Virus record (IMG/VR): IMGVR_UViG_3300042566_000100 | Coordinates: 1-35,326 of that record | DNA: 35,326 bases | Direction: 5' to 3' (one strand) | DNA from: a virus | In this document: positions 793 to 19,077 of the stretch, one piece after another | How positions within the stretch are numbered: the stretch's first letter is position 1 | Layout of the letters: each line of letters begins with the position of its first letter | Position numbers and translations under genes: made by a program | Notes under the pieces: model-generated | What the model was told of the DNA's origin: nothing | Databases searched by the model: none | What the model saw: only the letters and a program-made list of their open reading frames with translations

Positions 793-810
793 GATTTCTC
801 ATTTATTTTT

Positions 811-1213
811 GTGGAGATGCAGGGATTCGAACCCTGGTCCAAAGAATTAACTAATATGTTTCATTCACAAGCTTATTCAATTTTTATAAACTGAAAAAAT
901 ATAGAGTTTCTATTTTGCCATTGCCACTCTCAAATGTGGAAGATTCACTTTAATAGGTAGAACCTCAAACGAGACCTTTTGTTTTCCCACTCTTATTTAT
1001 AGAGTCAGCGAGCCGTACTCTTTACTTATTTTTCTATTTGTAACTTTCTGTTTCCAAGTTGTTACCACTCATACTACTTTTTCCCTTTGGGATTAGGCAG
1101 CGATAGCGTAATTAAATTCGCCTTTTACTTTGTGATAGATTTATGGTTTCCAATCTAACCATGCTTGCATCAACTATACTATTTACGATTCCTGTCAAAT
1201 GCCAGTCATCCCC
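811..1213 (-). ncRNA. ssrA: tmRNA (transfer-messenger RNA)
   Basis: tmRNA rescues ribosomes stalled on broken mRNA and tags the nascent peptide for proteolysis. The 5' end GGGGATG (1213-1207) pairs with CATCTCC (819-813) as a 7-bp acceptor stem with one G-U. The 5' part continues with the tmRNA-typical GACTGGCATTTGACAGG. The 3' part has a T arm, CAGGG-TTCGAAT-CCCTG. In between is a resume frame encoding GEFNYAIAA and a stop (1122-1093), ending in the YAxAA-type degron. CCA is not fully encoded (A then CAA), so it would be added after transcription. Total length is about 403 nt. It has its own promoter (1233-1265). The host surely has its own ssrA, so this is an extra, phage-borne copy. Confidence 0.95.
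1093..1122 (-). other. tmRNA tag-peptide reading frame (GEFNYAIAA)
   Basis: Codons GGC GAA TTT AAT TAC GCT ATC GCT GCC TAA follow an A-rich resume region. With the alanine carried by the tmRNA itself the tag would be AGEFNYAIAA. It resembles GENNYALAA-type tags I associate with Bacteroidota, with an Ile for Leu change just before the AA degron. Confidence 0.9.
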
Positions 1214-1281: not shown

Positions 1282-1842
1282 TTAAAAATCGTATAAACCA
1301 GCTACTGATTTAATATTACAATCTGAATTAAATGATATAATTGTTTTTACTATATTACTTTCTACGTTTGGTGCTCTATGTAATATGAAACTTGGGAACG
1401 TTAAAACATCACCTTCGTTTACATCTAGCTCAATAATTTCTTTTTGGTTCATTGGATTTAAAAGTTGCGTTTTTGGTGCTCCTTCTGGTAAATCCACATA
1501 ATAAACATTTGTAAATTGGCAATTTAAATGAACATGCCAACCATGCTCTGAACCTTTTTTGTATTGTTGAAACCATACGTTGTGTATATTGATTTCATTA
1601 AAACCTAATTGTAAAAATCTATTTTGCATTAACTCCACAATAGGAGGCATTGCTATTTTTGTATATTCTCTTTCAATATCTCTACTAACATTCCAATCCG
1701 TTCTTGTTATATCGGTGTAATCGTTTGGATATGAATAACGATTTGCTTCCGCATCGTTAATTAAATCTAAAACATCTTCCTTTATTAAATTATGTTCCGG
1801 TAGTTTGGAAATAATATATGGACATTCAATCCCTTTAATCAT
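1282..1842 (-). CDS. 2OG-Fe(II) oxygenase-like protein, phage type
   Basis: This 186-aa protein looks like the small 2-oxoglutarate/Fe(II) dioxygenases common in T4-like phages. The double-stranded beta-helix signature is WHVHLN (W102, H103, H105), followed by a YYV strand, then FPSFILHRAP carrying H155, and KTIISFN, where Lys166 sits in the place of the usual 2OG-binding Arg. It follows the next oxygenase-like gene with only 3 nt between them, so the pair is co-transcribed. The substrate is unknown; protein, nucleic-acid or small-molecule hydroxylation are all possible. It is the last protein gene before the RNA block. Confidence 0.7.
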   Translation of the reverse strand: MIKGIECPYIISKLPEHNLIKEDVLDLINDAEANRYSYPNDYTDITRTDWNVSRDIEREYTKIAMPPIVELMQNRFLQLGFNEINIHNVWFQQYKKGSEHGWHVHLNCQFTNVYYVDLPEGAPKTQLLNPMNQKEIIELDVNEGDVLTFPSFILHRAPNVESNIVKTIISFNSDCNIKSVAGLYDF

Positions 1843-1845
1843 AAT

Positions 1846-2448
1846 TTAATTTTCAAAATTTAAAATAACATTTCCAGCTGCTACTATTCTTTCTTTTGTA
1901 GAACTTGGCGATAAAGATGGTAGATGTTCTAAATTTGCATCAAATACATAGATGTATCCTTCTTCGGGAAAAAATGTATGTGTTATACTATGGTCTTTAT
2001 TATCTCTAAAAAACAATTTGCCTTCCGGTCCTTTACAATTATCAGGAACTTGCACATAATATACCCAAGTCCAATCTGTAAATGTATCAAAATCTGGGTG
2101 GAATTTTAAATGATTATGATAATGTGCCTGCTTTAATTCAGGAACTGCTATGTATATCCAAGTTCGTTGATACCCACTTAAATATTTTTCATTGTTTAGT
2201 TCCGTAAAGAAATCTCTTATTTTATTAAAGCATGATGAAAACATATTACGGGTTTCATCACCACATAGAGTCTGCCCATCCATTTGTAAACCTGGTGCTC
2301 TCATTCTAGTATCATTGAAACGCTTATCAGGCATCCACAAATCTCTATCAATTTGTATTTCTTTGATAACTTTTTGATTATCAATACCACTCATGGGTAT
2401 TTTGTAAATCGTATGATTTAAAAAACCAATTTCTTCGTAACTAATCAT
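1846..2448 (-). CDS. 2OG-Fe(II) oxygenase-like protein
   Basis: This 200-aa protein has a cupin-type dioxygenase pattern: HYHNH (H109, H111, H113), a WVYYVQVP strand, GKLFFRDN, a turn PEEGYIYVFD, H175 as the probable distal iron ligand, and ERIVAAGNV with R187 as the candidate 2OG anchor. Its overall layout parallels the 186-aa neighbour but sequence similarity is low, so it looks like a different subfamily rather than a recent duplicate. It begins 14 nt after the kinase gene and is probably transcribed with it. No substrate can be inferred. Confidence 0.65.
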   Translation of the reverse strand: MISYEEIGFLNHTIYKIPMSGIDNQKVIKEIQIDRDLWMPDKRFNDTRMRAPGLQMDGQTLCGDETRNMFSSCFNKIRDFFTELNNEKYLSGYQRTWIYIAVPELKQAHYHNHLKFHPDFDTFTDWTWVYYVQVPDNCKGPEGKLFFRDNKDHSITHTFFPEEGYIYVFDANLEHLPSLSPSSTKERIVAAGNVILNFEN

Positions 2449-2462
2449 AACTATTTATACTT

Positions 2463-3263
2463 TTATTTTATACTCTTCAATGCTCTTGCAGTTGCTATCC
2501 ATTTTTTAGCAATTGGATTTGTTATTGGTTGTGCTAAAAATTTAGATGCTGCTTTTGTTACATCACCATGCTTAACACCACTTACTGAATTATCTACAAT
2601 TGAGAATTTGTATCCACCAAATAATCTTTGGAACTTACCCATATTCTCTTGACATGCTTTCCAACTTTTTGTCAATAATTCTTCTGGTACTACTCTGCTT
2701 CTTTGTAAGTTTCTTTCTTTTGCTACTTCCAAAGATGTGTTTACAAATACCATATAGCAATCATAACCCAAATCTTCAGCATGTGCTTTTTGTTTAGCAA
2801 TCTTATCGTACTCGTGACCAGTACCATCAATAATCATACCCAATCTACCAGCTTCGTAAAAATCTTTTAGTTGTTTTGTTACACCTTTAGCTACATTACG
2901 AATTGAATCTGATGATTTACCTTGTATTTTATCCCATAATTGTGGGTCTTCTTTCTCAATCTTTGCTAAATCTTTTGGGTCTATACCATTTTTCTTTAAA
3001 CCAGCTTCAAATGCTGCATCTGAATTTACAACTTTCAAACCAGATGGTGCGAATTTTGTATAATCAACTACACCAAATATTTCTTTTGATGTGTAACCTT
3101 TACCACTGCCAGGTCCACCTGCTAAAAATACAATCTTAAAAATACCAGGGTCATCAACACCTTCCGCAATCATTTGCTCTTGCAACTTTTGCTTTGTTCT
3201 TTGTAAGTATATACTTAAAGTAGATAGTTCATCTATCCCCTCATTCAATAAATGTTTTGACAT
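2463..3263 (-). CDS. Zeta-toxin-like P-loop kinase
   Basis: This is a 266-aa P-loop NTPase. The Walker A motif is GGPGSGKG (residues 49-56). It is followed by VVNSD (78-82), a strand-plus-DGTG segment near 145, and an Arg-rich lid (ERNLQRSR, about 188-195), the layout of zeta-toxin/shikimate-kinase-like nucleotide kinases. The N-terminal 40 residues are helical and charged. The substrate may be a nucleotide, nucleotide sugar or nucleic acid end; sequence alone does not decide. No antitoxin-like partner is adjacent, which argues against a toxin role. Its promoter lies at 3285-3318. Confidence 0.7.
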   Translation of the reverse strand: MSKHLLNEGIDELSTLSIYLQRTKQKLQEQMIAEGVDDPGIFKIVFLAGGPGSGKGYTSKEIFGVVDYTKFAPSGLKVVNSDAAFEAGLKKNGIDPKDLAKIEKEDPQLWDKIQGKSSDSIRNVAKGVTKQLKDFYEAGRLGMIIDGTGHEYDKIAKQKAHAEDLGYDCYMVFVNTSLEVAKERNLQRSRVVPEELLTKSWKACQENMGKFQRLFGGYKFSIVDNSVSGVKHGDVTKAASKFLAQPITNPIAKKWIATARALKSIK

Positions 3264-3284: not shown

Positions 3285-3318
3285 TAAATATATATTTTTT
3301 TTAAATATGTGTCCAAAT
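3285..3318 (-). promoter_or_regulatory. Host-type promoter of the P-loop kinase gene
   Basis: The minus strand reads ATTTGG (3313-3318), 20 nt, TATATTTA (3285-3292). The -33 box lies inside the end of the upstream helix-turn-helix gene. The start codon is at 3263. Confidence 0.55.
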
Positions 3319-3474
3319 TTCTCTTCTAACTATCTTACGAACATTGGTAGTTGATACTCCGTTGTTCCTTGCAATTACTTTCAAATTACGATGTCCTATT
3401 TCCCATAGGTGTCTGATAGATATAACCTGTACATCCGTTAGTTTATGATTTGGATGTTGTTCGCCTTTTAACAT
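3301..3474 (-). CDS. Small helix-turn-helix protein (57 aa)
   Basis: This short frame starts with ATG at 3474, 3 nt after the HAD gene stop, and ends TAA at 3301. The protein reads KLTDVQVISIRHLWEIGHRN and continues LKVIARNNGVSTTNVRKIV before a final RREIW. That is the helix-turn-helix pattern seen at the ends of phage HNH/homing endonucleases (LTxxQVxxIRxL, then IAxxxGVSxxxVxxI, then W). Here it stands alone without a nuclease domain. It could be a stand-alone DNA-binding regulator or the remnant of a lost homing endonuclease. The tight spacing and clean frame suggest it is expressed. Confidence 0.75.
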   Translation of the reverse strand: MLKGEQHPNHKLTDVQVISIRHLWEIGHRNLKVIARNNGVSTTNVRKIVRREIWTHI

Positions 3475-4776: not shown

Positions 4777-5484
4777 TTATTTTTTAGGTTTTTTGATTGC
4801 CGCAAATGCTGTCTTATATGCAGTTGATGTTTTATCGTATCCTAATGCGGTTTTAACTTTTATGCTTCTACCTGTTTCTGGATTCTTTATCCTCTTATCT
4901 AATGCCCCATCGGGAATCATAGATGATAATTTTTTAATATTGGCTTGTTGTTTTTCTGCACCAGCTTTTGTTCCACTTTGTGCTTTTTTACCTTTCATAA
5001 ATAAGAATGTTTTTTCGTTGTTCTTAAACTTTGAAAATGCTTGTGCAGTTTGATTTGGATGAAACTTACCTATGTTTTCCTCACCACCTTCTCTAAAAAT
5101 TAGGTGTGCGTTTCCTTTTGTATCTTTACCACCATATACTACCGCATCTTGGTTATACTTTTTAGCTATATTAGCCATAAACTCTTTGGATGCACCTGGA
5201 ATGAATAGAGTTTCTTCTGTTGAATCTACCAATTTATCAGATGGACAATCTTCGTATTTAATATTTGAATCTTGACACTCTCTCCAATGTCCATCAATTT
5301 TAAAAAATCCCAAACCTTTTGCTCTACACTCTGCTTCTAATTGTTTGTTTAGTGCTTTGTTTTCTTTTGGAGTATTTGAGTATCTATATGCAGTTGCCAT
5401 ACCCCAACTACCAATCTTTTTATCTATTACGTGTTGGTATGCCCTTGTTAATGATGCTTCGGATAGTTTGTGAAATTTGTCCAT
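4777..5484 (-). CDS. DUF3293-like hypothetical protein, 235 aa
   Basis: The N-terminal half resembles DUF3293 proteins: a TAYRYSNTPKENKALNKQLE segment, then GFFKIDGHWREC, then a strand-rich part with LFIPGAS and AVVYGGKD. The C-terminal part is basic (KGKKAQSGTKAG, KIKKPKK-like tail) and carries NPETGRSIKVKTALGYD, similar to the short NPxTGRxIKV motif seen in some viral DNA-associated proteins. The biochemical role is unknown. A basic tail suggests nucleic-acid contact, which is inference. It is transcribed from its own promoter (5503-5536). Confidence 0.6.
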   Translation of the reverse strand: MDKFHKLSEASLTRAYQHVIDKKIGSWGMATAYRYSNTPKENKALNKQLEAECRAKGLGFFKIDGHWRECQDSNIKYEDCPSDKLVDSTEETLFIPGASKEFMANIAKKYNQDAVVYGGKDTKGNAHLIFREGGEENIGKFHPNQTAQAFSKFKNNEKTFLFMKGKKAQSGTKAGAEKQQANIKKLSSMIPDGALDKRIKNPETGRSIKVKTALGYDKTSTAYKTAFAAIKKPKK

Positions 5485-5502: not shown

Positions 5503-5536
5503 TAAATATAATAGTTTTTTCTTTTACCTACCAAAA
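5503..5536 (-). promoter_or_regulatory. Promoter of the 235-aa gene
   Basis: The -7 box TATATTTA (5503-5510) has TTTTGG (5531-5536) 20 nt upstream, inside the 3' end of the AAA gene. The start codon is at 5484. Confidence 0.4.
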
Positions 5537-6642
5537 CCGATTTTAGGCTTATCTTCTACCGTTTTGAATTGTTCTGTATTAATGTTGTAAATATCTGCTA
5601 ATGTCATTCCTTTATCTACCACATTATCCATACCTAAATGTTTAATAAGAATGTTTGTATCTTCTACATTTAGTTTATCAAACTTATGCTCTGCAATCAA
5701 TCTACCTTTTCTTAATAAAGCAGAATCAATCTTCTCCTTATCCATATTGAATGTTGCAATGATACTGATATTTAGAATATCACCCAATATACCATCGGTT
5801 AAATTAAGAATGTTAGACACACCAGTAGATGCATACGAATTATTCCTATCACCTATAATCTTTTCAGCATCCTCAATCACCAAAATACAATCTTTGTTAT
5901 CCATTAAGAATGGTACAAAATCAGGATTAACAATACTCTCTGCTAAAATTGGTGGTAAAAATAATACCTTTCTCTTCATATGATTTGCCAACCATTTGAT
6001 GTATGTAGTTTTACCCGTACCTGGCAACCCATGTAACAATACCAATCTACCCCTTTGTTCTTTTTTAGATGTAAGTGCAGTTACAATTGAGTCATTTATC
6101 TTAACAAAATCCTTACCATAGTTTAATTCCAAATCAATCTTTGGTTTTGGTAATTTGAACTCCTCGGTTTCAAATCCATAAGATGTTGCTTTCAATAAAT
6201 GTATCTTACCCTCTTTACTTTGTTTAGATAGTTTTGCTATATCATTTAATATAGTATCTTTTAATACATCGTTTGTACAAGTATATGCAAAAGATATTCT
6301 GTATTGGTTTTTCTTTGTAGATTTTATTTCATCACTATATTCTGGCTCATCAAAGTAATCACCATCTATCTCCGATGCGTTTATTAATATTAAATCACCA
6401 AAAATTCTTTTTTCATACGAACAATTTGTTTTTGATTGTTTTGGAGTTACAAAATATTCGGATTCTTGTATTTTAGTAAAACCAGCGGTTTCTATTAAAT
6501 TTAATATTCGTTTATCAAACTTTATATCATTAGCAAACTTTGTAGTATTGTACAACTTACCAGTCTTTAGAGCAATATATTTACCCATAGAGAAGTCATC
6601 ACCATGTCCTGCTGTGTATAGTTTTTCTAATTCCGTATTCAT
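5524..6642 (-). CDS. AAA+ ATPase, BCS1-like
   Basis: This 372-aa protein has a C-terminal AAA+ module: Walker A GLPGTGKT, Walker B ILVIEDAE, sensor-1 IIATFNMD, and an arginine-finger region RKGRL. The first half (about 180 residues) is a phage-specific domain of unknown fold with no membrane segment. I start at the ATG at 6642, which overlaps the stop of the upstream mom-like gene as TAATG and implies translational coupling; a TTG two codons earlier is possible. AAA proteins of this type remodel protein or nucleoprotein complexes. Linkage to two Mom-like genes suggests a role around DNA modification or packaging, but this is only context. Confidence 0.8.
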   Translation of the reverse strand: MNTELEKLYTAGHGDDFSMGKYIALKTGKLYNTTKFANDIKFDKRILNLIETAGFTKIQESEYFVTPKQSKTNCSYEKRIFGDLILINASEIDGDYFDEPEYSDEIKSTKKNQYRISFAYTCTNDVLKDTILNDIAKLSKQSKEGKIHLLKATSYGFETEEFKLPKPKIDLELNYGKDFVKINDSIVTALTSKKEQRGRLVLLHGLPGTGKTTYIKWLANHMKRKVLFLPPILAESIVNPDFVPFLMDNKDCILVIEDAEKIIGDRNNSYASTGVSNILNLTDGILGDILNISIIATFNMDKEKIDSALLRKGRLIAEHKFDKLNVEDTNILIKHLGMDNVVDKGMTLADIYNINTEQFKTVEDKPKIGFGR

Positions 6643-7445
6643 TACCAAAAGTTTTTAGCTATTTCTGTACTTGGTTCTATTGTAGTATGGTGTTCAATTC
6701 CTTTATTATACTCTCTTGCATTTTTAGGATACTCTCTGATTGGATGTTTTAATCGTTTCATCAAATCTTTTTTCTCCCTTTTATCCTGTGGTATTAATTG
6801 GATGTATCTATGTTTTGGTGGTTCTTCTCGTCTCCAAAATTCAATATAACCATCTTTACCAATCTCTCTTCGTAGGTGTTCTAAATTTCCACTACCCCAT
6901 TTTGTAAATACACTCCTACTATGTATCCATTTATATGGGTCTTTTTGGATTGATATACCATAATTTGGCATTAGTGCAATATCTGTATTTAATCCTTGAT
7001 AAATCCAATTGGTTGCTTGGTATATTCCACCTAAATGTTCTTGTCCATTATCAGCGTATGAGAGCAAAACTTTGATTGCCTTATCATTTTCTTTCAACCA
7101 CTTAAAAGATTGCCCCAAAGCAAAGCTTTCGATGTTAGAACCATACCCATCATCACAATACAAACGAGTCAATTCTAAAATATTATCTTTTGTTAAACCT
7201 TCACATACGGATGTGGGTGCTTTTGCTCCAACTGGAAACCCATAGATTAAACAACCTATTAGTTTTTCATTATCACCCAAAGCGTTTTCAGTATCCGTTT
7301 TGTAAAATATACCCAATGAGTATCTACAAGCAGTCCAAGCGTGAGTATAGTGTTTCTTTACAATTATTTCTTTTGCAATAGATGTACTAATCTCTCTAAC
7401 GGATACTTTGCTTGTATCACAATAATTTTTGTTAGCTTCTTTCAA
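6642..7445 (-). CDS. mom: Mom-like adenine hypermodification protein (paralogue 1)
   Basis: Mom of phage Mu converts adenine in DNA to a methylcarbamoyl derivative and so blocks restriction. This 267-aa protein has the Mom/GNAT-like core: LELTRL, DGYGSNIES, SYAD and GGIYQATNWIYQG. The residues I recall as important in Mu Mom (Y49, R101, S114, D139, Y149) line up as Y42, R94, S107, D132 and Y142, a constant offset of seven. The start is TTG at 7445, overlapping the upstream paralogue by 14 nt. The TTG is supported because the two paralogues align from residue 1 (MKxxxKxYCDTSK). There is no Com-like zinc protein beside it. Confidence 0.85.
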   Translation of the reverse strand: MKEANKNYCDTSKVSVREISTSIAKEIIVKKHYTHAWTACRYSLGIFYKTDTENALGDNEKLIGCLIYGFPVGAKAPTSVCEGLTKDNILELTRLYCDDGYGSNIESFALGQSFKWLKENDKAIKVLLSYADNGQEHLGGIYQATNWIYQGLNTDIALMPNYGISIQKDPYKWIHSRSVFTKWGSGNLEHLRREIGKDGYIEFWRREEPPKHRYIQLIPQDKREKKDLMKRLKHPIREYPKNAREYNKGIEHHTTIEPSTEIAKNFW

Positions 7446-8196
7446 TTGGTTCTAATTTATATATTTCATCAATGTGTTCTTCACCAACCTTTGGGTATGG
7501 GAATATTTCATGCTTCAAAGATTTAACTAATTGCTTTTTAACTTTTTTATCTTTCGTTAAAAAATAAACATAACGATGTTTTTGTGGTTCTCTTTTAATC
7601 CAAAAAGGTGATGTAACCATTGTTTGAATTTTCTTTGGGTCATTTGTACCATAGTATGGAAATATAGTTCTACCATGCTGCCACTCATCTATCTCACTCC
7701 ATTTAAAACTCCAACTATCACTCCATCTAATTTTATTACCCTGATAAATCCAATTGGTAGCTTGATAAATAGTTCCTTTATGCCCAACTTTTGGGTCTGA
7801 ATATGAAATTAGTGCTTTAATCTTTGGTGTATTATCTCGTAACCATTGAAATGTTTGTCCAACAAACCAACTTTCTATATTAGAACCATACCCATCAAAT
7901 ACAAATAAACGAGTCAATTCTAATACGGTATCTCTATTTAACATATCCGAAATAGATGCTCCAGTATTTCTACCAATAGGGTCACCATAACAAGCTACAC
8001 CTATTAGCTTTTCATTTACTCCACTAAAAAATTGATGCTCATCTGCTGATTGGTAAAACAAACCCAATGCATACGATACTTTTGTCCATATACCACTATA
8101 ATGGTTATTAACAATAATATCTTTTGCAACGGATTTGTTTACAGGTCTAACTATGAGTTTGGATGTATCACAATACTCCTTACCTTCTACTTTCAT
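7432..8196 (-). CDS. mom: Mom-like adenine hypermodification protein (paralogue 2)
   Basis: This 254-aa paralogue of the following gene shares YCDTSK, LELTRL, DGYGSNIES and IYQATNWIYQG with it. The presumed catalytic set is intact: Y42, R96, S109, D134, Y144. Between the core blocks the two proteins have diverged strongly, especially near residues 50-90 and after 150, so they are not a recent tandem copy and may act on different sites or form a heteromer. It is the first gene of its transcription unit. The promoter at 8202-8234 puts the start only a few nucleotides from the ATG, so the mRNA is probably near-leaderless. Confidence 0.85.
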   Translation of the reverse strand: MKVEGKEYCDTSKLIVRPVNKSVAKDIIVNNHYSGIWTKVSYALGLFYQSADEHQFFSGVNEKLIGVACYGDPIGRNTGASISDMLNRDTVLELTRLFVFDGYGSNIESWFVGQTFQWLRDNTPKIKALISYSDPKVGHKGTIYQATNWIYQGNKIRWSDSWSFKWSEIDEWQHGRTIFPYYGTNDPKKIQTMVTSPFWIKREPQKHRYVYFLTKDKKVKKQLVKSLKHEIFPYPKVGEEHIDEIYKLEPIERS

Positions 8197-8201
8197 AGTT
8201 A

Positions 8202-8234
8202 CAAAGATAATAAAACTTTTTTATATAACCTAAT
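8202..8234 (-). promoter_or_regulatory. Promoter of the mom-like operon, near-leaderless
   Basis: The minus strand reads ATTAGG (8229-8234), 19 nt, TATCTTTG (8202-8209), then TAACT and the ATG at 8196. A start seven or so bases after the box would fall at or just before the initiation codon. Confidence 0.65.
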
Positions 8235-17541: not shown

Positions 17542-19077
17542 TTAATTGAGGATAATATCATTGGATTTTATTAACTCAATTAATTCTTCATGCGAATATG
17601 CTAGAGATTCTGCATAGTTTATATCATTATCATATTTTATAAACCAATTTCCCAACTTATTATCCAAATCATATTCTTCATTTTCACGTTCATACACCGA
17701 TTTATCAATTACACCATTACCATATGCAACTGCAAACCAACTATGTTCTTCAAATTGAGTAAATAAAAAATCGCTATCAATAATGTTTACAGTTCTTTTT
17801 TTCCAACTATTTAAACGTCTTTTCATTTTTGGACTTAATGTAGTTCTTTTTTGATAATCTCTCCAAAAATCAGTATCATTTCTATCTGTAATATAATGGA
17901 ATTGTAAAAAATCAATTATTGTTTCGCAAGTATCCCCTATTAGTTTGTTGTAATCATCAATCTCATCTGCATCTATATTGTGTATATTATCCGATGTTAG
18001 ATTTCTCAATTGTGTTATTATTAACCAAATGGATGTTGCTTCGATTGGTTCGGTAAATGTTGAACTTAAACCAACTGCTATACAATTTTTAACCCAAGGT
18101 GTATCATATCTACCCGCATCAAATGGTATAACTTTGTTGATTTTTATTTCCTGCCCAACCATTTCTTCAACCTCTTTCTTTGCTTCCTCTACATTTATGT
18201 ATTTGTCATCAAACACATATCCACAGCCCCATCTATTCTGTAAAGGTATTTGCCACATCCAACCATATTTCATTGCTACCGCTTTGGTATATGGTGGTAG
18301 AGTATCTGATTTTGGTAAAAAGAATGGTATAGCAGTATTTACTTTTAATTTATCCTGATGTGATTTCCATTCTACACCAAAGTGTTTTCCAATAAATAAT
18401 CTTGCAAATCCAGTACAATCAAATACAAAATCTGATTTTATTTCAATATCATCGCATTTAATCGAACCAATACCACCATTCTCATTTGATATAATATCGG
18501 TTATTTTACCTTCAATTCTTTTTATACCACGTTCTTCGGCTTTCATTCTTAAAAATTTAGCCAATAAACTTGCATCAAAATGATAGCTATAATTTGAAAC
18601 AAATTTAACATTTTCATTTTCGTTTATAAATGGTGATTTATTATTGTAAGCAAGTTTAGAAACTAAACTTACATCATCAATTGTTTCACCATTTGCAATA
18701 GCATTTATATATGCATATTGCTGTCCATTATCAGGCAAACCACTTACTAATGTATTTTTTGTTTTTGTAAAATTATAAGGACTTAAATTTGAATCCGAAA
18801 CTCCGAAGCTATGCATATACTTTTTACCATCACCTCTCCAATTTTCAAAACTAATACCCATTTTTAAAGTTGCGTTTGCATATTTTATTAGTTCATTTTC
18901 ACTAATACCTAATGCATATAATATCCAAGGTAGTTGTGGAGTTGAGCCTTCACCTGCTCCCAATATACCAATATCTTCACTTTCAATGAGTGTTATATTA
19001 TCTTTTGGACAAATGTGCTTTGCATATAAAGCAGTCAACCATCCAGCAGTTCCACCACCAGCTACAACTATTTCCAT
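17542..19077 (-). CDS. Flavin-dependent tryptophan-halogenase-like protein
   Basis: This 511-aa protein is full length for the PrnA/RebH family. These enzymes use FADH2, oxygen and chloride or bromide to halogenate tryptophan. Features are the FAD-binding GGGTAGW (7-13), GAGEGSTPQ, ATLKMGISF with Lys72 at the catalytic lysine (K79 in PrnA), the signature GWMWQIP (272-278), and EPIEATS with Glu346 at the catalytic glutamate (E346 in PrnA). All diagnostic residues are kept, so halogenase chemistry is likely. The substrate in a phage is unknown, and no flavin reductase is nearby. The ATG overlaps the upstream stop as TAATG. Confidence 0.9.
   Translation of the reverse strand: MEIVVAGGGTAGWLTALYAKHICPKDNITLIESEDIGILGAGEGSTPQLPWILYALGISENELIKYANATLKMGISFENWRGDGKKYMHSFGVSDSNLSPYNFTKTKNTLVSGLPDNGQQYAYINAIANGETIDDVSLVSKLAYNNKSPFINENENVKFVSNYSYHFDASLLAKFLRMKAEERGIKRIEGKITDIISNENGGIGSIKCDDIEIKSDFVFDCTGFARLFIGKHFGVEWKSHQDKLKVNTAIPFFLPKSDTLPPYTKAVAMKYGWMWQIPLQNRWGCGYVFDDKYINVEEAKKEVEEMVGQEIKINKVIPFDAGRYDTPWVKNCIAVGLSSTFTEPIEATSIWLIITQLRNLTSDNIHNIDADEIDDYNKLIGDTCETIIDFLQFHYITDRNDTDFWRDYQKRTTLSPKMKRRLNSWKKRTVNIIDSDFLFTQFEEHSWFAVAYGNGVIDKSVYERENEEYDLDNKLGNWFIKYDNDINYAESLAYSHEELIELIKSNDIILN

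What the first reader, a model, noticed from the sequence alone, without database searches (positions are those of the whole stretch)
6642..8196. Tandem, diverged Mom-like DNA modification genes
Both copies keep the five residues I recall as important in Mu Mom, at a constant offset (seven residues in copy 1), yet differ strongly elsewhere. Two active-looking Mom enzymes in one operon suggest two sequence specificities, two chemistries, or a heteromer. There is no Com-like activator beside them.
Basis: partly seen in the sequence, partly recalled or inferred. Interest (0 to 1): 0.72.

Follow-up and report, generated by a model that had tools for sequence, protein, structure and literature searches.

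The report
Twin Mom DNA-modification genes in phages
A T4-like virus of bacteria carries two anciently duplicated, separately maintained copies of a rare DNA-disguising enzyme (Mom) side by side, a pairing conserved in dozens of related environmental viruses but found in none of the isolated phages searched, which suggests a two-enzyme shield against bacterial DNA-cutting defences.

Summary
Both genes are Mom (PF25680, E about 1e-43), 43% identical to each other, with confident models whose top solved match is Mu Mom (Z 22.0 and 20.2). All Mom residues I tested, including the serine whose mutation inactivates Mu Mom, are kept in both copies. The pair is not a local accident: 62 of 81 distinct environmental viral loci hold both copies. 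In a 96-protein tree each copy forms one supported clade, so the duplication is old, and low dN/dS indicates that both are functional. Copy 1 (6642-7445) is never clearly missing. Copy 2 has changed state about six times on the copy-1 tree, presumably by loss. That argues against an obligate heteromer and for copy 2 as an optional enzyme, most likely with its own target specificity. Some relatives hold a third Mom. No Com was found, but relatives carry a single-copy ~60-residue helix-turn-helix gene whose stop overlaps the Mom start; in this window it lies 3.2 kb away in the same gene run. A SAM-lyase-like gene lies two genes downstream. No record in 50,697 phage entries showed two Mom copies. 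Target sequence, chemistry and activity are untested.

The parts
7432..8196 (-). Mom copy 2 (upstream, 'P2', 254 aa)
   Evidence: PF25680 E=7.7e-43; pLDDT 92.8 model, Z 20.2 to 8bv8; P2 clade of 23 rows, support 99
6642..7445 (-). Mom copy 1 (downstream, 'P1', 267 aa, TTG start overlapping P2 by 14 nt)
   Evidence: PF25680 E=2e-43; pLDDT 90.5 model, Z 22.0 to 8bv8; P1 clade of 27 rows, support 98
8202..8209 (-). TATCTTTG, match to the Bacteroidota -7 element TAnnTTTG directly upstream of the P2 start (inferred promoter)
   Evidence: consensus from established knowledge; weak, as the 8-mer is only mildly over-represented on this strand (33 seen, about 23 expected)
3301..3474 (-). Small helix-turn-helix protein (57 aa); in relatives its orthologue directly precedes and overlaps Mom
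   Evidence: similar to the DNA-binding end of HNH endonucleases, phrog_20467 E=3.7e-6
5524..6648 (-). AAA ATPase following P1, start overlapping the P1 stop; membership in the module uncertain
   Evidence: PF00004 E=3.6e-12; beside Mom only in the window's close relatives
4777..5484 (-). S-adenosylmethionine lyase-like protein; possible counter-defence partner
   Evidence: PF23780 E=2.1e-11, 44.3 bits against cut-off 28; 11 of 38 Mom contigs carry one, near Mom in three arrangements

Best explanation
The locus encodes two paralogous, catalytically competent Mom-type enzymes of a T4-like phage, probably infecting Bacteroidota. Each is inferred to attach a small acyl-derived group to N6 of adenine in replicating phage DNA, as Mu Mom does, so that host restriction enzymes cannot cut it. 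Copy 1 is the core enzyme. Copy 2 is an anciently diverged duplicate kept because it covers targets that copy 1 does not: different sequence context is most likely, a different transferred group less so. It is dispensable where the local defences do not demand it. Shown: family, fold, conserved active-site residues in both clades, old duplication, purifying selection, asymmetric retention. Inferred: that both modify DNA, that the mark is on adenine, that specificities differ, and that the purpose is anti-restriction.
For: Family and fold. Active-site columns 93-100% conserved in each clade, including the serine mutated in PDB 8bv8, 'inactive mutant S124A'. Two reciprocal clades (98, 99) in one tree. 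Purifying selection: window against its nearest relative dN/dS 0.016 (copy 1) and 0.097 (copy 2), medians 0.15 and 0.19. 62 of 81 distinct loci have both copies and 11 have copy 1 without copy 2; no copy-2-only locus has more than about 1.3 kb of downstream flank. Copy-2 presence needs about 6 changes on the copy-1 tree, at least 5 forced. About 20 columns are fixed differently in the two clades while the active site stays fixed, as expected for changed specificity with retained catalysis. Further Mom types occur in some relatives.
Against: No activity, substrate or modified DNA has been measured. Mu Mom is very divergent from this group (long branch) and has R144 and Q204 where nearly all others have H and K, so identical chemistry is not assured. 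Clade-specific columns could reflect partner binding or stability rather than target choice. The tree is a quick one with SH-aLRT support only.
Confidence: 0.6

Rival explanations
1. The two copies form a heterodimer (or copy 2 is a partner that retargets copy 1), rather than two independent enzymes.
For: PHROG 1384 was treated as a validated dimer against PDB 8bv8, with a homodimer prediction of TM 0.88 and ipTM 0.88 (PMC13232217). Genes overlap or abut in 77 of 173 pairs. Copy 2 was never seen alone with a long flank.
Against: Copy 1 is kept without copy 2 in at least 11 distinct loci, including a 266 kb contig with a single Mom, so it does not need copy 2. Both copies keep the complete active site, which a non-catalytic partner would be expected to lose. 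In many relatives other genes lie between them.
Confidence: 0.18
2. The copies are functionally redundant and kept for dosage or timing of modification.
For: Same family, same conserved active-site residues, often one gene run.
Against: Dosage duplicates should stay similar; these are 43% identical and form two old clades with many differently fixed columns.
Confidence: 0.12
3. One copy has moved to another acceptor or chemistry (RNA, protein, or a different acyl group), so only one is a DNA modifier in the Mu sense.
For: GNAT folds serve many acceptors; copy 1 has clade-specific R41, F70, P160, N161, R205 and an insertion at 199-200.
Against: Catalytic columns are unchanged in both clades and no residue tested points to loss of DNA binding.
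Confidence: 0.1

Closest known systems
Mom of phage Mu (PF25680; PDB 8bv8)
   Same: Same Pfam family, top structural match to both models (Z 22.0 and 20.2), same H, Y, R, S, D, Y residues
   Different: Mu has one copy, preceded by Com; about 25% identity; Mu has R144 and Q204 where this group has H and K
Mom-like protein of Polaribacter phage P12002L
   Same: Nearest annotated relative, 43-45% identity to each copy; falls with both clades in the tree
   Different: Single copy, different gene context (next to a DNA methyltransferase gene); not characterised in the record
Jumbo-phage Mom domains fused to REase-fold nucleases (PMC7824862)
   Same: Mom family in large phages, thought protective
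   Different: Fused nuclease domain; here two stand-alone Mom proteins
T3 SAM lyase (for the companion gene at 4777-5484)
   Same: Matches the Pfam S-AdoMet lyase family PF23780, to which I assign T3's enzyme from general knowledge
   Different: Activity of the window's protein untested; phage SAM-AMP lyases are an alternative

Membership tests
Mom family (PF25680) | Score above the curated profile cut-off over the full domain | tested here: met
   148.9 and 147 bits against cut-off 27.1, profile 2-202 of 202
Mom family (PF25680) | GNAT-like Mom fold | tested here: met
   Models pLDDT 90.5 and 92.8; best match 8bv8 Z 22.0 (182 residues, 3.2 A) and Z 20.2 (196 residues, 4.3 A), other GNATs about Z 12
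Mom family (PF25680) | Conserved active-site residues (H48, Y49, R101, S114, D139, Y149 in 231-aa Mu numbering; S114 = S124 of 8bv8) | tested here: met
   All six present in both copies; 93-100% conserved within each clade
Mom family (PF25680) | Modification of adenine N6 in DNA | not testable with these tools
   Needs protein or virion DNA; no isolate of this phage group with Mom was found
Mu-type com-mom operon | Com zinc-ribbon regulator (PF10122) overlapping the mom start | tested here: inconclusive
   No PF10122 match in the window, but no control genome rang either; relatives have an unrelated small HTH gene in that position
S-adenosylmethionine lyase family (PF23780), companion gene | Score above the curated cut-off | tested here: met
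   44.3 bits against 28; catalysis untested

The most novel reading that the evidence does not exclude
A modular multi-enzyme Mom system: a small HTH protein, apparently translationally coupled to Mom in most relatives, controls or targets two (sometimes three) Mom paralogues that modify adenines in different contexts or with different groups. Because Mom is thought to use no SAM, the phage can destroy the cell's SAM with a neighbouring lyase and cripple SAM-dependent restriction while still marking its own DNA.
Probability: 0.2. Interest if true: 0.75.

Novelty: new variant of a known kind. Interest (0 to 1): 0.52.

Why it matters
What determines Mom's target choice and what group it transfers are, as far as I know, still open. 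Two anciently diverged paralogues in one genome with the same active site and about twenty differently fixed positions form a natural comparison set that makes specificity directly testable by swapping segments. The pair also shows that Mom-type modification is common and elaborated in uncultured T4-like phages, although none of the 50,697 phage records searched showed two copies.

Tried and rejected
Assembly artefact: rejected, the same pair recurs in 62 distinct loci from many datasets. Recent duplication: rejected (43% identity, two clades). Pseudogene: rejected (open frames, low dN/dS). Obligate heteromer: disfavoured. Com-like gene in the window: none found, weak test. Anti-phage defence system models (PADLOC): no match for either Mom. 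Nearest isolate by UvsX, Microcystis phage Mel-JY01 (58%): no Mom match, so no cultured model there. Upstream neighbours of Mom in other phages as a shared HTH family: mixed; only Microbacterium phage LeeroyJenkins has an annotated HTH gene overlapping Mom, others have unknown, nuclease or Com genes, so a general HTH-Mom rule is not supported. Literature: no report of tandem Mom genes in the open-licence library; a look-up by the DOI I recalled for the main Mom biochemistry paper found nothing held, so Mu residue numbers other than S124 are from memory plus alignment. Models could not be read as coordinates in the Python box, so distances of clade-specific residues from the active site were not measured.

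Full report
What is there. The window is a 35 kb fragment of a T4-like phage (UvsX, gp41-like helicase, ribonucleotide reductase, PhoH, and large ORFs that look like tail genes, nearly all on the minus strand). At 8196-7432 and 7445-6642 lie two ORFs of 254 and 267 aa that overlap by 14 nt. I call the upstream one copy 2 (P2) and the downstream one copy 1 (P1). Both match the Mom family with E about 1e-43 and PHROG 1384, and are 43% identical to each other.

Active site. By alignment of 96 Mom proteins, both copies keep the residues aligned to Mu H48, Y49, R101, S114, D139 and Y149. S114 in this numbering is S124 of the PDB chain, and PDB 8bv8 is titled 'inactive mutant S124A'; it is S107 in P1 and S109 in P2 and invariant in the set. 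Offsets from Mu are -16 for H48 and Y49 in both copies, then -7 (P1) and -5 (P2). In addition, H137 (P1) and K211 (P1) are near-invariant in the family but are R144 and Q204 in Mu, so Mu is the odd member and its exact chemistry should not be assumed.

Fold. AlphaFold2 models are confident (pLDDT 90.5 and 92.8). The best solved match of each is Mu Mom, Z 22.0 over 182 residues and Z 20.2 over 196; the next GNAT proteins score about 12.

Not a local event. Scans of IMG/VR gave 210 loci that collapse to 81 clusters sharing no exact 200-mer: 62 carry both copies, 11 carry copy 1 without copy 2 (upstream flank held), and the rest are cut by contig ends. In the tree, copy 1 and copy 2 are each one side of a branch with support 98 and 99 (quick search, SH-aLRT only). 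The nearest outsiders are the Mom of Polaribacter phage P12002L and one from a Brocadia assembly. The duplication therefore predates the spread of this phage group. dN/dS is 0.016 and 0.097 against the nearest relative, medians 0.15 and 0.19.

Asymmetry. No locus with copy 2 and more than about 1.3 kb of downstream flank lacks copy 1 (in some relatives the gap itself exceeds 1.3 kb, so the shorter ones are undecided). Copy 1 without copy 2 is found in several places on the copy-1 tree: about six changes, at least five forced by starred branches. Contigs of 238 and 266 kb carry copy 1 as their only Mom. So copy 1 can do without copy 2; an enzyme pair that works only as a heteromer is unlikely. 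Some relatives have three: a middle copy in L281/L284/L285, and a Synechococcus/Enterococcus-type Mom upstream of PhoH in others.

Companion gene. In almost all relatives the order is RNR, (PhoH), thioredoxin, a small HTH protein, P2, P1. The HTH stop overlaps the P2 ATG by 4 nt in most junctions, the hallmark of coupled translation. It is single-copy in 16 of 16 tested contigs, up to 266 kb, and lies within about 5 kb of Mom in all of them. In this window it lies at 3301-3474, still in the same gene run, and P2 begins behind a TAnnTTTG element. The HTH resembles the DNA-binding end of HNH endonucleases. It sits where Com sits in Mu but shows no relation to it. Conserved synteny alone could explain the position, so a role in Mom control is a hypothesis.

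SAM lyase. The gene at 4777-5484 matches the S-AdoMet lyase family. T3's enzyme degrades SAM and blocks BREX (PMC12707154). Eleven of 38 Mom contigs carry such a gene; it lies within about 5 kb of Mom in three different arrangements (the window's close relatives, L043/L044, L130) and far away in four contigs. A SAM-independent modification next to a SAM-destroying enzyme is a sensible combination, but this is inference. The protein could instead be a SAM-AMP lyase, known from phages (PMC12255297).

Novelty. Searches with P1, P2 and the third type found Mom in about 260-285 phage records each, always one place per record. A second copy too diverged for tblastn at 1e-5 could be missed. No paper in the open library describes tandem Mom genes. 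I file the genes as Mom-family members in a new arrangement: a new variant of a known kind.

Verdict. Observation confirmed; interpretation partly supported. Two independent Mom-type enzymes with diverged target choice is the best reading (0.6).

Noticed in passing
window 4777-5484 (-): S-adenosylmethionine lyase-like protein (PF23780), two genes downstream of Mom copy 1; found near Mom in three different arrangements among relatives, far from it in others.
   Followed up: partly
window 3301-3474 (-): Small HTH protein that in relatives directly precedes and overlaps Mom; here displaced by about 3.2 kb within the same gene run.
   Followed up: partly
L281/L284 2544-4801; L222, L223, L225, L130: Relatives with a third Mom: a middle copy between P2 and P1 in L281/L284/L285, or a Synechococcus/Enterococcus-type copy upstream of PhoH (two stop codons inside the profile match on the L223 and L232 contigs).
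   Followed up: partly
window 809-1213 (-): Phage-borne tmRNA (Rfam RF00023, 56.3 bits) with an unusual predicted tag ending VAMAK.
   Followed up: no
window 17542-19077 (-): Full-length tryptophan halogenase (PF04820, E=4e-113) in a phage gene run.
   Followed up: no
window 524, 628, 767, 8209, 17516 (-): TAnnTTTG elements in intergenic positions, several preceded by a similar TTTCG stretch, suggesting Bacteroidota-type promoters and host.
   Followed up: partly
window 5524-6648 (-): AAA ATPase whose N-terminal half has no Pfam match, start overlapping the stop of Mom copy 1; adjacent to Mom only in close relatives.
   Followed up: no
L192 3974-5248 and 6874-8385: Two long ORFs (about 425 and 504 aa) with Mom-like domains close together in a Synechococcales cyanobacterium assembly, possibly fused to another domain.
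   Followed up: no
L160 496-1257 and 2846-3481: Two unlike Mom genes 1.6 kb apart on a contig filed under bacterium TMED198, probably phage sequence.
   Followed up: no
window 1282-2448 (-): Two adjacent 2OG-Fe(II) oxygenase-like genes next to a zeta-toxin/kinase-like gene (2463-3263).
   Followed up: no
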